A DNA stretch of 22,352 nt from a virus: positions 1 through 22,352 of IMG/VR virus record IMGVR_UViG_3300029286_000263. One strand, 5' to 3'. Below are positions 63-10,295 of the stretch, in pieces. Position numbers and translations under genes: made by a program. Every line of letters begins with the position of its first letter. Position 1 is the stretch's first letter. The notes beneath the pieces were generated by a model. The model saw only the letters and a program-made list of their open reading frames with translations, made no database searches and was not told the origin of the DNA.

Positions 63-1037
63 ATGGACATTCAAGAGTGGGAGGTTAAAAAACTTCGATT
101 GGCCGACTTGATACCCTGGCCGCGGAACCCCCGGAAGATAGGCCGGGAGGCATATGAGAGGCTTAAGGAGCGGATAATCGCCCGCGGCTGCAAATTTAAA
201 TGCCCCTTCTGCCTGCTGAGCGGCCTGAAGGGCTACCGGGAAATTCCGACCGAGCAGGTGGTCGAAAAAATCAGGCAGATACCCCGTGGCAGCATGGCGG
301 CCATATTTGCTCCGGAGAGAACATCTCATTCCGGCTGGAATGAAATCAAGGCCGCGATCCGGGATCAGAGCATCCGGGACTACGGTAGCGACGCCCGGCT
401 GGAAACCCTGGAAAAGGTAGACAGCGATTCTGTAATCATGGGTCTGGAGGGCGTCTCTTATCGTTTGAGAAAATCCATCAGGAAGAATTTTACCGACGAC
501 TTCATCATTGAAAAGATGAAAGATTTTTGTACCTCCGGAAAGCGGCTGAGATTCGGCGCTAAAATCAGTATATATTATATTGCCGACCTGCCCGGAGAAA
601 TCAATGAAGACTATAAAGAATTTCTGGATTTCATCCGCCGGATAGAATCAGAAAACTGGAGTCGGAACCTTTGCCTTGTCCCTGTGCTGAACCCATTAAG
701 CCCCAAACCGTTTACGCAACTGCGGGATGCGGTAATTCACCCGTTTCGAAATTACCCGGCCATTTGGGAGAACATATTGCGAGGCGGGGATAACAACCGA
801 AGGTGGGGCGTTCGCATCAAGGAGTACAAAGTTTGGGGGTGCTTCGAACGAACGGTTGACACAATCGTTCATCGCGGCGGATCGGAGGGGTATCAAATAA
901 TTGGAAAATTAAACGACAAACTTTTGCGTCAGGTTCCCGCCGACTGGGAAAGACAGGTTTTGGTGAGTAAGGAAATCTTAAAAGTTTGCGATAAAATAGG
1001 GTTGACACAAGAAAAATTATTGTACGAATACGATTAA
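63..1037 (+). CDS. Chimeric ParB-like N-terminus / radical SAM protein
   Basis: 324 residues. The ATG at 63 has GGGAGGG at 46-52 as its ribosome site. Residues about 8-37 (LADLIPWPRNPRK, then a helix) look like the opening of a ParB/Srx-type domain, which phages often carry near terminase genes, usually joined to a DNA methyltransferase. The ParB fold stops there, without its later conserved motifs. Next comes IIARGCKFKCPFC, with a canonical CX3CX2C cluster (C43, C47, C50) that would bind a 4Fe-4S centre for S-adenosylmethionine cleavage. GLEGVSYRLRKSI (127-139) and LPGEINEDYKEF (176-187) fit the core of B12-type or MiaB-like radical SAM enzymes. No B12-binding domain is present. The stop abuts the small terminase start, suggesting co-transcription. 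The substrate is unknown; modification of DNA or a virion protein is only a guess. Certain about the cysteine motif; the joint could be natural recombination or an assembly artefact. Confidence 0.7.
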   Translation: MDIQEWEVKKLRLADLIPWPRNPRKIGREAYERLKERIIARGCKFKCPFCLLSGLKGYREIPTEQVVEKIRQIPRGSMAAIFAPERTSHSGWNEIKAAIRDQSIRDYGSDARLETLEKVDSDSVIMGLEGVSYRLRKSIRKNFTDDFIIEKMKDFCTSGKRLRFGAKISIYYIADLPGEINEDYKEFLDFIRRIESENWSRNLCLVPVLNPLSPKPFTQLRDAVIHPFRNYPAIWENILRGGDNNRRWGVRIKEYKVWGCFERTVDTIVHRGGSEGYQIIGKLNDKLLRQVPADWERQVLVSKEILKVCDKIGLTQEKLLYEYD

Positions 1038-1682
1038 ATGGCGACAAATCAAATTAGTGTTGTCGGTGCGTGTGAGAAGGTCTACGGCATTACCCCGCGC
1101 CGCTATCAACAGTTGGCAAAAGAGGGTTTTGTGCCTGCCGGAGTTAAGGGCGAGATAGATTTCATTGCCTCCACGAAAGCGATAATCGAGTATTACCGAA
1201 AAAAAGCAGAGGGGTCGGGAAGCATATCATTAACTGATGAACGGACGCGGCTGACAAAATTACAGGCTGACCTTGTGGAAAGGGAACTACGGGAAAAGGA
1301 TAGCGAGCTGCTTCCCTTTGAGCAAGTCAAGGCGGACTGGCTGCGGTATTGCGGTGCGGTAAAGGCGCGGCTGCTCAACCTCCCGACAAAATATGCCCCG
1401 ATATGTTTTGGCAAAACGATAGCCGAAATCAAAGAAACAATCGAGGGTGGAATTCACCAGGCGTTAGCGGAATTGGTACAATTAAAATATGACGAGCAAT
1501 CAAAGACTGTGGTCCGAGGTGGCGAGCATCTTCACCCCGCCGTCAAAAATGACGGTAAGCGAATGGGCGGACGCCGAAAGAGTATTAAGCCCAGAATCAA
1601 GCGCGGAGCCGGGAAAGTGGCTGACAATCCGGGCACCGTATCAAAAGGGGATGATGGACGCCTTCAACGATCCGCTGATTGA
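1038..1682 (+). CDS. Terminase small subunit (Nu1-like)
   Basis: 214 residues; the ATG follows directly on the previous TAA. The N-terminus (ACEKVYGITPRRYQQLAKEG, about 11-30) is a winged-helix DNA-binding segment as in lambda Nu1, followed by a basic recognition region and a long helical stretch (LTDERTRLTKLQADLVEREL, then a charged segment) typical of the family's oligomerisation part. WLRYCGAVKARLLNLPTKYAP (split by family as W-L-R-Y...K-Y-A-P, about 101-121) is a recurrent feature of these proteins. The role would be recognition of the packaging site and recruitment of the large subunit. The conserved part ends near residue 155; the last 60 or so residues are very basic and low in complexity and are read from DNA that also encodes the start of the large subunit in another frame, so this tail may be poorly constrained. 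Confidence 0.85.
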   Translation: MATNQISVVGACEKVYGITPRRYQQLAKEGFVPAGVKGEIDFIASTKAIIEYYRKKAEGSGSISLTDERTRLTKLQADLVERELREKDSELLPFEQVKADWLRYCGAVKARLLNLPTKYAPICFGKTIAEIKETIEGGIHQALAELVQLKYDEQSKTVVRGGEHLHPAVKNDGKRMGGRRKSIKPRIKRGAGKVADNPGTVSKGDDGRLQRSAD

Positions 1683-4497
1683 AATGGTGGTGTTGATGAC
1701 CAGCTCACAAATCGGGAAAGCACTGGCTATTGATACGCCGTTACCTACACCAAGCGGGTGGAAGGTAATGGCTGATATACAAATCGGGGATTTACTTTTT
1801 GACCAAAACGGCAATCAATGTGAAGTTACTTTTGCAACAGATATTATGTTTGATAGGCCGTGCTATTCTGTGCGATTTTCGGATGGGAGTGAAATTATTG
1901 CAGATGCCGAACATCAATGGTGTGTTGAGTCGGAATTAAAAATAATTCCCGCAATTCGTTCTCTTCGTGGAACCGGCAAGGGTTGTGGTAATAAGGGTTG
2001 GTTAAGTAAAGGAATTTCGTGTGGTATTCTTATGACAGAACAAATAAAAGAAACCTTACATTGTTGGAAAAACAGAAATACGTATGCTGTGCCAGTTGCC
2101 AAAATGCTTCAAATATCGGGTAGAGAACTTCCGATAGATCCATACGCACTCGGTGTTTGGTTGGGAGATGGACATTCTTATTCTCCACAAATTTCGTGTT
2201 CAGAAAAAGATATTGAAGTCGTCGATTATTTGCGTTCTTGTGGTTTAATAGTAGAAATTCGCAATGAGAAAACCTGTAAAAATCTCAAATTAAAATTACC
2301 AGAAAAAGAAAACGGATCATTAAGTTGTAGGTTGCGAGAGATGAAACTTTTGCGTGGAAGTAGTAGCACCGACAAGAACAACAGAAAACACATACCACAC
2401 GAATATCTTTGGGCGGGAACCAAACAACGGCTTTCTTTATTGCAGGGTTTAATGGATACAGACGGAAGCATATCGGAAAATGGGAGGTGTGAGTTTTCAA
2501 CCACATCAAAAGAAATTGCTGATGGTGTTGATGTTTTATTGTCTTCGTTAGGAATTAAGCACACAATAAAAACAAAAATTCCAACCTGCACATATAAAGG
2601 GGAAAAAGTGATTGGTAAAAAAGCATACAGGTTTTCATTTTTGGTGTATAACGAAATCCCGATTTTCAGACTTAAAAGAAAACTTGGAAAATTACCATCA
2701 AGAGAAGGCAGAATAACCACCGAAACAGAAAGACGAAGAATCATTAAAGTAGAAAAAGTAAAATCAGTTCCAGTTAGGTGTATCCAGGTAAACAGTGAAT
2801 CTCATTTATATTTAGCTGGCAAGCAAATGATACCAACACATAATACCGAATGCCTGAACAATATGCTGGGTTATGTCATTGATAAGGAACCATCGCCCAT
2901 TTTAATTGTTTACCCAACCCTCGAAATGGGGCAGGCGTGGAGCAAGGACAGACTATCGCCGATGCTCCGGGATACGGGCTGTATTCAGCGAAAAGTGTCG
3001 GACGTTGCCAGCCGGGAATCAGAAAATACTATCATGCATAAAGGCTTCGACGGAGGGCATCTTACAATATCCGGCGCAAACTCCGCGGCTTCGCTTGCCT
3101 CCCGGCCGGTCAGGGTGGTTTTGTGTGACGAGGTTGACCGCTATCCGGTTACAGCCGGCACGGAAGGCGATCCGGTCAGGTTGGCTTTCAAGCGGTGTGC
3201 CACATTCTGGAACCGGAAGAAGTTGGTTACATCCACTCCGACTGTCCGCGGCATCAGCCGGATTGAGCGGTTCTGGGATGAATCTGATAAGCGGCTGTTT
3301 TACGTTCCCTGCCCGCATTGTGATGTCTACCAAGTTTTAAGCTGGAAAAATGTGCGGTGGCCGAAAGCAGAGGATGGGTCGTATCAAACAGACAAGGCGT
3401 GTTACATCTGCGAGTTTTGCCAAAAGCCGATTACGGATGGCGACAAGCCCGGCAGTCTGGCAAAAGGTGAATGGCGTAAAACGGCGCAATCAAAAGGAGT
3501 CGCCGGTTTTCACATAAACGAATTATATTCGCCGTGGGTTTCGTTCCGGGAAATGGCTGAAGATTTTTTGGAGGCGAAGAAATCACCGGACACCTTGCAG
3601 GTATTCATCAACACCTCGCTTGGCGAGGTCTGGGACGAGTCCGGAGAGACAATCAGCGATGAAGGGCTGATGGCCAGGCGGGAGCAGTATTATGCCGAAA
3701 TACCGGAAGAAGTTGTTGTTTTGACCTGCGGTGTGGACGTTCAGGATGACCGCATTGAGGCGGAAGTTGTCGGCTGGGGGCCGGGCGAGGAGTCCTGGAA
3801 TGTAGTCAGCCAGATGTTTCACGGAGATCCAGCCAAGCCGGAAGTCTGGCAAGACCTCGATTTGTTTCTGCAAAAGGATTTCCAGCATGAGGTCGGCTGT
3901 AAATTAAAAATTGCCTGTACCTGCATCGACTCCGGCGGTCATCATACCCAGGCGGTTTATTCTTTCGTAAAGCAACGGCAGCACCGCAGGATATTTGCCG
4001 TCAAAGGTAGCAATCAGCCCGGGCGTCCAATCGTCGGCCGCTACACCACCGGGAATAATATGCGAGTCAAACTATTCCCAATTGGCACAGATACGGCAAA
4101 GGAGCTGGTCTATGGCCGGCTGAAGATAGAGAGTCCCGGACCATCTTTCTGTCATTTCCCAATTGACCGGGACATGGAATACTTTAAGCAACTCACCGCG
4201 GAGAAGATGGTGCAAAAGTTTTCGATGGGTAAGTTGACCCGAAAATGGGTGGCGGTCAGAAAGCGCAATGAAGCGCTGGATATGCGGATTTACGCCACGG
4301 CCGCGCTGTATATTCTCAATCCAGATTTTGATGTATTGAGCCAAATCATCAAAGAGCAAGCGGAAGAAATAGAAGCGCACGGCAATACGCCGCAGCCGGA
4401 GACTGAATTAAAGACTGCGGATGACGGCCAGCGCGAGTCTGTTGACCGGGTAAGGCAACGCCGCCACAATGCGTCTTTCACCCGCGGCTGGCGGTAG
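1489..4497 (+). CDS. Terminase large subunit (GpA family) interrupted by an intein
   Basis: 1002 residues, of which 78-452 are an intein, leaving a 627-residue extein, close to lambda GpA size. It is the ATP-driven motor and nuclease that packages and cuts concatemeric DNA. The N-terminus (LWSEVASIF, MTVSEWADAERVLSP, RAPYQKGMMDAF) is typical of the GpA family and supports the ATG at 1489 inside the small-subunit gene. Walker A is SSQIGK/TE, restored only after splicing. Walker B is VVLCDEVDRY (543-552), followed by a coupling-type VTSTPT (580-585). A zinc-ribbon-like set, CPHC (608-611) and CYICEFC (638-644), follows. The nuclease domain begins near CGVDVQDDRIEAEVVGWG with later acidic residues such as CIDSGG. 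The C-terminus is basic. Without splicing the ATPase loop would be broken, so activity should depend on the intein. No strong ribosome site precedes the ATG, so translation may be coupled to the small-subunit gene. Confidence 0.95.
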   Translation: MTSNQRLWSEVASIFTPPSKMTVSEWADAERVLSPESSAEPGKWLTIRAPYQKGMMDAFNDPLIEMVVLMTSSQIGKALAIDTPLPTPSGWKVMADIQIGDLLFDQNGNQCEVTFATDIMFDRPCYSVRFSDGSEIIADAEHQWCVESELKIIPAIRSLRGTGKGCGNKGWLSKGISCGILMTEQIKETLHCWKNRNTYAVPVAKMLQISGRELPIDPYALGVWLGDGHSYSPQISCSEKDIEVVDYLRSCGLIVEIRNEKTCKNLKLKLPEKENGSLSCRLREMKLLRGSSSTDKNNRKHIPHEYLWAGTKQRLSLLQGLMDTDGSISENGRCEFSTTSKEIADGVDVLLSSLGIKHTIKTKIPTCTYKGEKVIGKKAYRFSFLVYNEIPIFRLKRKLGKLPSREGRITTETERRRIIKVEKVKSVPVRCIQVNSESHLYLAGKQMIPTHNTECLNNMLGYVIDKEPSPILIVYPTLEMGQAWSKDRLSPMLRDTGCIQRKVSDVASRESENTIMHKGFDGGHLTISGANSAASLASRPVRVVLCDEVDRYPVTAGTEGDPVRLAFKRCATFWNRKKLVTSTPTVRGISRIERFWDESDKRLFYVPCPHCDVYQVLSWKNVRWPKAEDGSYQTDKACYICEFCQKPITDGDKPGSLAKGEWRKTAQSKGVAGFHINELYSPWVSFREMAEDFLEAKKSPDTLQVFINTSLGEVWDESGETISDEGLMARREQYYAEIPEEVVVLTCGVDVQDDRIEAEVVGWGPGEESWNVVSQMFHGDPAKPEVWQDLDLFLQKDFQHEVGCKLKIACTCIDSGGHHTQAVYSFVKQRQHRRIFAVKGSNQPGRPIVGRYTTGNNMRVKLFPIGTDTAKELVYGRLKIESPGPSFCHFPIDRDMEYFKQLTAEKMVQKFSMGKLTRKWVAVRKRNEALDMRIYATAALYILNPDFDVLSQIIKEQAEEIEAHGNTPQPETELKTADDGQRESVDRVRQRRHNASFTRGWR
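1720..2844 (+). mobile_element. Intein with LAGLIDADG homing endonuclease, class 3 signature
   Basis: 375 residues inserted between Lys77 and Thr453 of the terminase. It starts ALAIDTPLPTPSGW, with Ala where most inteins have Cys or Ser, and ends IPTHN followed by Thr. Block B reads GSEIIADAEHQW, giving His at intein residue 65 and Trp at 67 (B12). Block F reads VRCIQV, with Cys354 where class 1 inteins usually have Asp. Block G has Thr373-His374-Asn375. Trp, Cys and Thr together are the WCT triplet that defines class 3 inteins, where the block F Cys is the first nucleophile. Two dodecapeptide motifs, ALGVWLGDG (143-151) and LQGLMDTDG (241-249), mark an apparently intact DOD homing endonuclease. 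The DNA is plainly richer in A and T than the flanking extein, consistent with recent arrival. The extein reads through cleanly once it is removed. Confidence 0.95.
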
Positions 4498-8351: not shown

Positions 8352-10295
8352 ATGTCAAAGGAAAAGGGTGATGCCGGCGCACTCAAGATACTGAAATCGC
8401 TGGTGCACAAGAAACAAGAGCGCATCTTCACCTTTGAAAAGTCCACCATTGACGAAGAAGCGCGGACGGTCGAGCTGTCGTTTTCGTCTGAAGAACCCGG
8501 CGAACGGTTTTACGGCATGGAAATCCTGGACCACCAGGAAACATCCGTCAGGTTGCAAAGGCTGAATGACGGCGGCGCGGCTTTATTTAATCACAATACC
8601 GATGACCACGTCGGCGCAATAGAATCGGAAACGGCTCACATTGACACCGGCTCCAGGAAAGGGCGGGCGAAGGTGCGCTTTGGAAAAGGCGTGCTGGCAA
8701 GTGAGAAGTTTCAGGACGTGAAGGACGGGATTCTTCGCAACGTGAGCGTCGGGTATTGGGTTCACAAGATGGTGATGGAAAAAGAGGTCGGGGGCGTTAA
8801 AACCTATCGGGTAACCGACTGGGAGCCGCTGGAAATCTCTTTTGTGACCGTGCCGATGGATGCGTCGGTAGGCGTCGGCAGAGCGGCAGATGGGGACTCA
8901 TCCAAAGTTTTAGGCGCGGATGGGGAAGTGGTTCACGAAGAAGCGGCTCCAGCAGCGGGCGACCCGCCTCCGGCAGAGCCAGAAAAGGAGAAAAAAATGG
9001 ATAAATGCGTAAAGTGCGGTACTTTGCTGGTCGATGGCGCTTGCCCGACCTGCAAGGCGCTGGAAGCGCGGAATAAGGAAAACTCCGAAATCCTCGCTAT
9101 CGGCAAAAAGTTCGGCAAGGACGTTGACGCCGCCGAATATGTTGCAAGCGGCAAGTCCGTAGCCGAATTCAAGGATGCCATAATTGCCGGGATGAAGGAA
9201 ACCCCGACCGTTACGGTTATCAAGGACGAGGCGGACAACAAGAACAAGGTCAATCAGGGCTGGAAGCATTTCGGCGAATTCCTGCAAGCGGTTGCCTCTG
9301 CGGAAAAACGCGGCGGAAGCATGGACAATAGGTTAGTCCGGGCTGCTGCTGGAATGGGTGAATCCGTGCCGTCTGACGGAGGTTTTCTCTTACAGGACAC
9401 CTTCACCACGGACCTGCTCAAACTGACTCACGACACCGGAGTCCTGTACCCGCTCTGCCGCCGGATTCCCATCGGACCGGGAAGCAATAACCTTTCGGCG
9501 CCAGTAACTGACGAGACCAGCCGAGCCACAGGTTCACGGTTTGGCGGCTTGCAGATGTATTGGGATGACGAAGGAACGGCGGCCACAAACAAAAAGGTGA
9601 AATGGGCAAAGCTGGAAATGAAGTTGCACAAACTTCATGGGCTTTCTTACGTCACCGAGGAAATGCTTCAGGATGTTTCGCAGCTTGAGGCAATCGTAAA
9701 GGGCGCTTTCGCAGAAGAAGCAAACTTTATGATTGACGACGGGATTATCAACGGCACGGGCGCGGGCGAAATGCTCGGTATCCTTGCCGCCTCATGTCTC
9801 GTCAGCCAGGCCGCCGAAACCGGACAGACTGCGGATACGATTCTGTCGGAGAACGTTATCAATATGTATTCGCGGATGCCGGCTCGGAGCCTGAAGAACG
9901 GAATCTGGCTTTGCAATAACGAAGCGTTTCCGCAGCTGTGCCAGATGTACACGGCGGTTGGTACTGGTGGCGTTCCGGTTTTCACGCCTCCGGGTGGCAT
10001 TTCAACCGCTCCTTTCGGGACGCTTTTTGGCCGACCGATTCAGTATGTTGAACAGTGCGCGAAGTTGGGCGACCTGGGCGACATTGTTTTCGCTGATTTG
10101 AGCCAGTATCTTATCATCGAAAAAGGCCAGCTGGAAGCCGCCGGAAGCATCCACGTCCGCTTCATCTACGACGAAATGACCTACAAATTCACGGTGCGGA
10201 TAAACGGGCAGCCGATTCCGAGAAGTGCGCTGACTCCTTACAAGGCGACCTCCGGAAGAACTGTTAGTCCGTTTGTCGCATTGGCGGCTCGGTAA
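8352..10295 (+). CDS. Prohead protease-major capsid protein fusion with zinc-ribbon linker
   Basis: 647 residues with two functions in one chain. Residues about 25-175 are an HK97-type (S78) prohead protease: FNHNTDDHVG places the catalytic His at 81, RNVSVGYW the catalytic Ser at 132, and EISFVTVPMD is the usual closing strand. Residues 190-215 are acidic and Pro/Ala-rich. Then a small zinc ribbon, CVKC (219-222) and CPTC (231-234), leads to a helical scaffold-like delta region (235-300). From about 300 on is the HK97-fold capsid protein: GESVPSDGGFLLQDTFTTDL is the N-arm/E-loop lead, LHGLSYVTEEMLQDVSQLEA the spine helix region, and GTLFGRPIQYVE plus LGDIVFADLSQYLI the late core strands. The protease should cut the linker and scaffold away during maturation. 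A possible internal start (ATG 8997) could supply extra capsid subunits without protease. The ATG at 8352 follows AAGGAG. Confidence 0.93.
   Translation: MSKEKGDAGALKILKSLVHKKQERIFTFEKSTIDEEARTVELSFSSEEPGERFYGMEILDHQETSVRLQRLNDGGAALFNHNTDDHVGAIESETAHIDTGSRKGRAKVRFGKGVLASEKFQDVKDGILRNVSVGYWVHKMVMEKEVGGVKTYRVTDWEPLEISFVTVPMDASVGVGRAADGDSSKVLGADGEVVHEEAAPAAGDPPPAEPEKEKKMDKCVKCGTLLVDGACPTCKALEARNKENSEILAIGKKFGKDVDAAEYVASGKSVAEFKDAIIAGMKETPTVTVIKDEADNKNKVNQGWKHFGEFLQAVASAEKRGGSMDNRLVRAAAGMGESVPSDGGFLLQDTFTTDLLKLTHDTGVLYPLCRRIPIGPGSNNLSAPVTDETSRATGSRFGGLQMYWDDEGTAATNKKVKWAKLEMKLHKLHGLSYVTEEMLQDVSQLEAIVKGAFAEEANFMIDDGIINGTGAGEMLGILAASCLVSQAAETGQTADTILSENVINMYSRMPARSLKNGIWLCNNEAFPQLCQMYTAVGTGGVPVFTPPGGISTAPFGTLFGRPIQYVEQCAKLGDLGDIVFADLSQYLIIEKGQLEAAGSIHVRFIYDEMTYKFTVRINGQPIPRSALTPYKATSGRTVSPFVALAAR
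8984..8999 (+). promoter_or_regulatory. Putative internal ribosome binding site and start inside the protease-capsid gene
   Basis: AAAAGGAG at 8983-8990 lies six bases before an in-frame ATG at 8997 (Met216), directly at the zinc ribbon (MDKCVKCG). Starting here would give a 432-residue scaffold-plus-capsid chain lacking the protease, as lambda Nu3 arises from an internal start in C. The same purine run also encodes EKEKK, so the site may be fortuitous. Confidence 0.45.

What the first reader, a model, noticed from the sequence alone, without database searches (positions are those of the whole stretch)
1720..2844. Class 3 (W-C-T) intein in the Walker A loop of a terminase large subunit
The intein begins with Ala rather than Cys or Ser, and carries Trp at B12 (intein residue 67), Cys at F4 (354) and Thr at G5 (373), the triplet that defines class 3 splicing. 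It has two intact LAGLIDADG motifs and A/T-rich DNA unlike its surroundings. It sits between Lys and Thr of the ATPase P-loop, so packaging is impossible until it splices. Class 3 inteins are rare, with a proposed phage origin; one with Thr as the downstream residue is a useful case.
Basis: partly seen in the sequence, partly recalled or inferred. Interest (0 to 1): 0.75.

Follow-up and report, generated by a model that had tools for sequence, protein, structure and literature searches.

The report
Class 3 intein in phage terminase
A self-removing protein segment (an intein of the known class 3 type, with its own DNA-cutting domain) interrupts the ATP-binding loop of a phage DNA-packaging motor; it is a normal member of a large known group, but some of its closest relatives appear to be made as two separate pieces, which is unusual.

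Summary
Window 1720-2844 encodes a 375-residue intein inside a GpA-family terminase large subunit (1489-4497), between Lys and Thr of the P-loop (SSQIGK|T). It starts with Ala and carries His65 (B:10), Trp67 (B:12), Cys354 (F:4), Thr373 (G:5), His374, Asn375 and Thr+1. Both blocks align without gaps to the proven class 3 DnaB inteins, and the predicted splicing domain superposes on the M. smegmatis one (rmsd 1.3 A, 50% identity, 125 of 125 residues). The middle is a two-motif LAGLIDADG endonuclease like PI-SceI. GC is 37.7% against 53% in the extein.

Class 3 inteins are not rare: 1701 were catalogued by 2020. Ser or Thr at +1 is their rule. P-loop K|T terminase inteins are also known. This is a new member of a known kind.

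Following relatives gave a better lead. At the same site, 36 mostly Rhodobacterales (pro)phage loci (12 distinct at 90% DNA identity) carry a related class 3 intein split between two overlapping genes, both under strong purifying selection. Only one natural split class 3 intein is in the literature I could search. Splicing was not tested for either.

The parts
1038..1682 (+). Terminase small subunit, overlapping the start of the large subunit by 194 nt
   Evidence: PHROG 57, E 9e-23
1489..1719 (+). N-extein of GpA-family terminase large subunit, ending ...MTSSQIGK (P-loop up to Lys)
   Evidence: Translation; BLAST matches of up to 66% identity to N-exteins of GpA relatives
1720..2844 (+). Class 3 intein, 375 aa (Ala1 to Asn375)
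1720..1761 (+). Intein block A, ALAIDTPLPTPSGW; Ala at position 1, no N-terminal nucleophile
   Evidence: Gapless alignment to 6bs8 and 6rix
1885..1929 (+). Intein block B, GSEIIADAEHQWCVE; His65 (B:10), Trp67 (B:12)
2143..2175 (+). First LAGLIDADG motif, YALGVWLGDGH (Asp150)
   Evidence: endonuclease part aligned to PI-SceI
2431..2475 (+). Second LAGLIDADG motif, LSLLQGLMDTDGSIS (Asp248)
   Evidence: Pfam LAGLIDADG_3, E 6e-11
2764..2844 (+). Intein blocks F and G, SVPVRCIQV...IPTHN; Cys354 (F:4), Thr373 (G:5), His374, Asn375
2845..4497 (+). C-extein: Thr+1, rest of GpA ATPase domain and nuclease domain
   Evidence: Pfam GpA_ATPase and GpA_nuclease

Best explanation
The insert is a class 3 intein carrying a LAGLIDADG homing endonuclease, fixed between Lys and Thr of the P-loop of a GpA-family terminase large subunit. 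Inferred mechanism, by homology to tested class 3 inteins: Cys354 (F:4), helped by His65 and with Trp67 and Thr373 in the active-site core, attacks the Lys-Ala1 bond and forms a thioester-branched intermediate. The N-extein then moves to Thr+1, Asn375 cyclises with help from His374, and the exteins join, restoring SSQIGKTE. Until then the Walker A loop is interrupted and the motor cannot bind ATP normally. The endonuclease domain would cut intein-free terminase alleles and spread the intein by homing. Shown here: the anatomy, conservation and predicted fold. Not shown: splicing, cleavage, homing.
For: WCT plus His B:10, His G:6 and Asn G:7 present and invariant in 15 same-site inteins; Thr+1 present. 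Gapless block alignment to the biochemically proven class 3 Msm and Mch DnaB inteins (PMC5222942, PMC7664689). AlphaFold model, mean pLDDT 88.6, superposes its splicing domain on 6bs8 at Z 22.7, 1.3 A over 125 residues, 50% identity, and the whole chain on PI-SceI at Z 27.3. Both terminase halves are intact and joined in frame. GC contrast fits a recent mobile arrival. At the Q-x-G-K site, 120 of 120 retrieved Ala1 pattern matches in viral contigs lie in intein homologues.
Against: No splicing or endonuclease assay exists for this sequence. Class is assigned from sequence and predicted fold only. The linker 79-96 is predicted with low confidence.
Confidence: 0.95

Rival explanations
1. Class 2 intein: Ala1, with the +1 residue attacking the N-terminal junction directly and no block F intermediate.
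For: Ala1 is shared with class 2 (PMC4031507).
Against: Known class 2 inteins are KlbA orthologues with Ser at G:6 and Cys+1 (PMC4031507). Here G:6 is His, +1 is Thr, and F:4 is Cys in a WCT set.
Confidence: 0.01
2. Decayed intein that no longer splices, leaving a dead terminase in a defective phage.
For: A class 3 pseudogene is known (PMC3196547). The record is a 22-kb virus fragment, so phage viability cannot be judged.
Against: All catalytic residues and both endonuclease motifs are intact, the frame is open through 1002 codons, and neighbouring packaging and capsid genes are intact.
Confidence: 0.04
3. Splices normally, but the endonuclease is inactive, so the intein is now immobile.
For: No cleavage data; the lineage also holds mini-inteins without endonuclease (L057, L083).
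Against: Both LAGLIDADG acids are retained, as are the invariant Lys223 and Pro226 of the KHIP motif. Base composition suggests recent arrival.
Confidence: 0.2

Closest known systems
Class 3 DnaB inteins of Mycobacterium smegmatis (6bs8) and M. chimaera (6rix)
   Same: WCT triplet, Ala1, His-Asn end, splicing-domain fold (Z 22.7, 1.3 A, 50% identity).
   Different: Those are mini-inteins in DnaB helicase without endonuclease; this one has a LAGLIDADG domain and sits in a terminase.
Mycobacteriophage TerL inteins, sites a-g (PMC5050341)
   Same: Terminase host protein; TerL1-a is also between Lys and Thr of the P-loop; class 3 inteins occur at sites c, d and e.
   Different: Those are terminase_1, terminase_6 and a terminase-like family; this host is a GpA-family terminase.
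GpA-terminase K|T class 3 inteins in IMG/VR and prophages (L017, L054, L117, L148, L161 and others)
   Same: Same host family, same insertion point, same WCT; 34-55% identity to the window intein over 14 aligned relatives.
   Different: Vary in endonuclease content; one subclade is split into two genes; a few have Cys1.
AceL NrdHF split class 3 intein (PMC7891396)
   Same: Class 3 mechanism; relevant to the split relatives, not to the window.
   Different: It is in ribonucleotide reductase, has Met instead of Trp at B:12, and is distant in sequence.

Membership tests
Class 3 intein | Trp at B:12, Cys at F:4, Thr at G:5 | tested here: met
   W67, C354, T373 in register with 6bs8 and 6rix without gaps
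Class 3 intein | No Ser, Thr or Cys at intein position 1 | tested here: met
   Ala1
Class 3 intein | His at B:10, His at G:6, Asn at G:7 | tested here: met
   H65, H374, N375, invariant in 15 same-site inteins
Class 3 intein | Ser or Thr at +1 | tested here: met
   Thr+1 at 2845-2847
Class 3 intein | HINT fold | tested here: met
   Predicted model, Z 22.7 to 6bs8, 1.3 A over 125 residues
Class 3 intein | Falls in the single class 3 clade, apart from class 1 | tested here: inconclusive
   Groups with Ala1/WCT inteins, but a rooted tree with class 1 outgroups was unresolved because of very long branches
Class 3 intein | Splicing requires Cys F:4 and passes through a block F thioester branch | not testable with these tools
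   Needs mutants and thiol-lability assay
LAGLIDADG homing endonuclease | Two LAGLIDADG motifs with catalytic acids | tested here: met
   WLGDG and GLMDTDG, Pfam LAGLIDADG_3 E 6e-11; PI-SceI fold match Z 27.3
LAGLIDADG homing endonuclease | Cuts intein-free alleles of the host gene | not testable with these tools
   Needs a cleavage assay
GpA-family terminase large subunit | GpA ATPase and GpA nuclease domains in order | tested here: met
   E 8e-79 and 1.5e-93
Class 2 intein | Cys+1 and Ser at G:6 | tested here: not met
   Thr+1 and His374

The most novel reading that the evidence does not exclude
The window intein is an unsplit relative of a natural family of split class 3 inteins. At the same GpA-terminase P-loop site, Rhodobacterales (pro)phages encode N-extein+IntN and endonuclease+IntC+C-extein as two overlapping genes in different frames, with a conserved ATG/TTG start for the second, so the packaging motor would have to be assembled by protein trans-splicing. 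The window intein would then serve as the one-chain comparator for how a frame shift in the endonuclease linker turns a class 3 intein into a split one.
Probability: 0.6. Interest if true: 0.65.

Novelty: new member of a known kind. Interest (0 to 1): 0.38.

Why it matters
By itself it adds a well-preserved, endonuclease-bearing class 3 intein in a GpA terminase, a host family not named among the intein-bearing terminases in the mycobacteriophage survey (PMC5050341). Its lineage matters more: at one insertion site there are full-length, mini, Cys1-bearing and apparently split class 3 inteins. That gives a natural series for studying how class 3 inteins lose endonucleases, gain or keep an N-terminal nucleophile, or split. 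If the split family is real, it multiplies the number of known natural split class 3 inteins from one and supplies candidates for protein ligation tools.

Tried and rejected
Searching viral contigs with the intein protein alone found nothing, because the back-translated patterns were too specific; P-loop DNA patterns worked. No isolate phage record covers 80% of the intein-bearing terminase, so the same-site group is known here only from uncultivated virus contigs and genome assemblies. A rooted tree to ask whether Cys1/WCT inteins are ancestral or reverted was unresolved: the two class 1 outgroups sat on branches of 8-10 changes per site, AU p 0.5. The Tori and Perler 2011 paper on the class 3 definition was not held, so its statements come second-hand from PMC3196547 and PMC5222942. 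For the split family I looked for a shared slippery sequence in the overlap by eye and saw none; I did not run a formal frameshift predictor. A search of 391 Rhodobacterales genomes found the split form in only 2, so it is sporadic. No RNA family or tRNA lies in the window.

Full report
What is there. The ORF at 1489-4497 is a GpA-family terminase large subunit (Pfam GpA_ATPase 8e-79, GpA_nuclease 1.5e-93) interrupted by 375 codons at 1720-2844. The insertion point is ...MTSSQIGK | ALAIDTP...IPTHN | TECLNNM..., between the invariant Lys and the following Thr of the Walker A loop. Terminase small subunit lies upstream; portal, a protease-capsid fusion and tail genes follow in the usual order. 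The window is the whole of a 22,352-base virus record.

Is it class 3? Against Protein Data Bank sequences the best matches are the class 3 DnaB inteins of M. smegmatis (6bs8, E 9e-33) and M. chimaera (6rix, E 9e-32). The alignments run without gaps through blocks A-B and F-G, so Trp67 falls on B:12, Cys354 on F:4 and Thr373 on G:5. Across 15 same-site inteins Ala1, His65, Trp67, Cys354, Thr373, His374 and Asn375 are invariant. An AlphaFold model (mean pLDDT 88.6, pTM 0.88) puts the splicing domain on 6bs8 at Z 22.7, 1.3 A over 125 of 125 residues with 50% identity, and the whole chain on PI-SceI at Z 27.3. Published work defines class 3 by this triplet and shows Cys F:4 to be the first nucleophile (PMC5222942, PMC7664689). 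The assignment to class 3 is firm at the level of sequence and predicted fold; the chemistry is inferred.

How unusual is it? Not very. A 2020 survey counted 1701 class 3 inteins in nr, 82.5% with LAGLIDADG motifs (PMC7891396). Ser or Thr at +1 is the rule; one Cys+1 case was the exception (PMC5222942). Lys|Thr P-loop terminase inteins and class 3 terminase inteins are both described in mycobacteriophages (PMC5050341). The same pattern with Cys gave 12, of which 9 are intein homologues. The pattern is biased towards this lineage, so these are not frequencies of classes in general. The base composition (37.7% GC against 53.0%; GC3 28.8% against 61.2%) and intact endonuclease motifs suggest a recent, still mobile element; both points are inference.

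Relatives at the same site. A GpA-biased pattern scan of viral contigs and of one genome per species, together with the loci, gave 76 loci whose exteins match this terminase: 68 with Ala1 and 8 with Cys1. Some are near-duplicates, and a few match the terminase only weakly. All whose blocks B, F and G could be read in the alignment keep Trp B:12, Cys F:4 and Thr G:5, including the Cys1 group. Two lack the endonuclease (L057, 166 aa; L083, 174 aa). In a quick tree the window intein lies in a fork with L117, L161, L203, L148 and the split group (SH-aLRT 83, so weak); its highest identity to any row is 58% over 339 columns, to a member of the split group, L185.

The split group. In 36 loci, mostly Rhodobacterales prophages and viral contigs (21 distinct at 97%, 18 at 95%, 12 at 90% DNA identity over IntN), the reading frame of the terminase closes about 100 to 150 residues into the intein (usually ...EGDC*). 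The rest continues in the +1 frame: endonuclease, IntC with Cys F:4 and Thr-His-Asn, then the C-extein. In a few of the 36 the contig ends before IntC, and in L180 the second frame closes early. The overlap is usually 53-56 nt. In all 26 sequences with a readable IntC the second frame has a start codon at the same place, ATG in 25 and TTG in L196 (L201, cut off later, also has TTG), with a G-rich stretch such as GGGGGA or AGGGAC about 8-13 nt upstream. dN/dS is 0.02-0.19 in N-extein, IntN, endonuclease+IntC and C-extein, with 0.43-0.69 synonymous differences per site, in seven pairs. Both halves are therefore kept functional, and a sequencing error or a dead gene is very unlikely. The group is one clade (SH-aLRT 99) next to the unsplit L148. 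It is sporadic: 2 of 391 Rhodobacterales genomes sampled; two copies occur in one Thalassovita autumnalis genome. My preferred reading is a split intein made through internal initiation. Programmed +1 frameshifting inside the overlap is the rival (I put it at about 0.25-0.3); I saw no conserved slippery site, but did not test this formally. The literature I could search holds one natural split class 3 intein (AceL NrdHF) and one artificial one (PMC7891396, PMC10559147).

Verdict. Two of its reasons for interest (rarity, Thr+1) do not. The window intein is a new member of a known kind. The lead worth following is the split family that its relatives revealed.

Noticed in passing
L198 2424-5655, L202, L185, L187, L190, L191, L030, L156, L163, L168, L172, L196 and about 24 more loci: Class 3 intein at the same GpA-terminase site is split into two overlapping ORFs (N-extein+IntN; endonuclease+IntC+C-extein in the +1 frame) with a conserved ATG/TTG start for the second and strong purifying selection on both: a probable natural split class 3 intein family.
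   Followed up: partly
L132, L133, L134, L137, L138, L140, L141 (N-terminal part only read in L136): GpA-terminase inteins at the same site with Cys at position 1 and the full W-C-T triplet; could be reversions or relics of a Cys1 ancestor. A rooted tree was unresolved.
   Followed up: partly
L057 and L083: Mini-inteins (166 and 174 aa) at the same site with WCT but no endonuclease domain.
   Followed up: no
L205 1030-3992 (Endozoicomonas plasmid CP092490.1): Related GpA terminase whose P-loop Lys reads Gly and whose intein starts with Pro; the C-extein continues in a second ORF that overlaps by 4 nt. Possibly a decaying or differently organised copy.
   Followed up: no
window 63-1037: Radical SAM family protein (Pfam E 1e-9) directly upstream of the terminase small subunit, same strand; an unusual neighbour for a packaging module.
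   Followed up: no
window 1489-1682: Terminase small and large subunit genes overlap by 194 nt in different frames.
   Followed up: no
window 8352-10295: Prohead protease (Peptidase_S78) and major capsid protein (Phage_capsid) fused in one 647-aa ORF.
   Followed up: no
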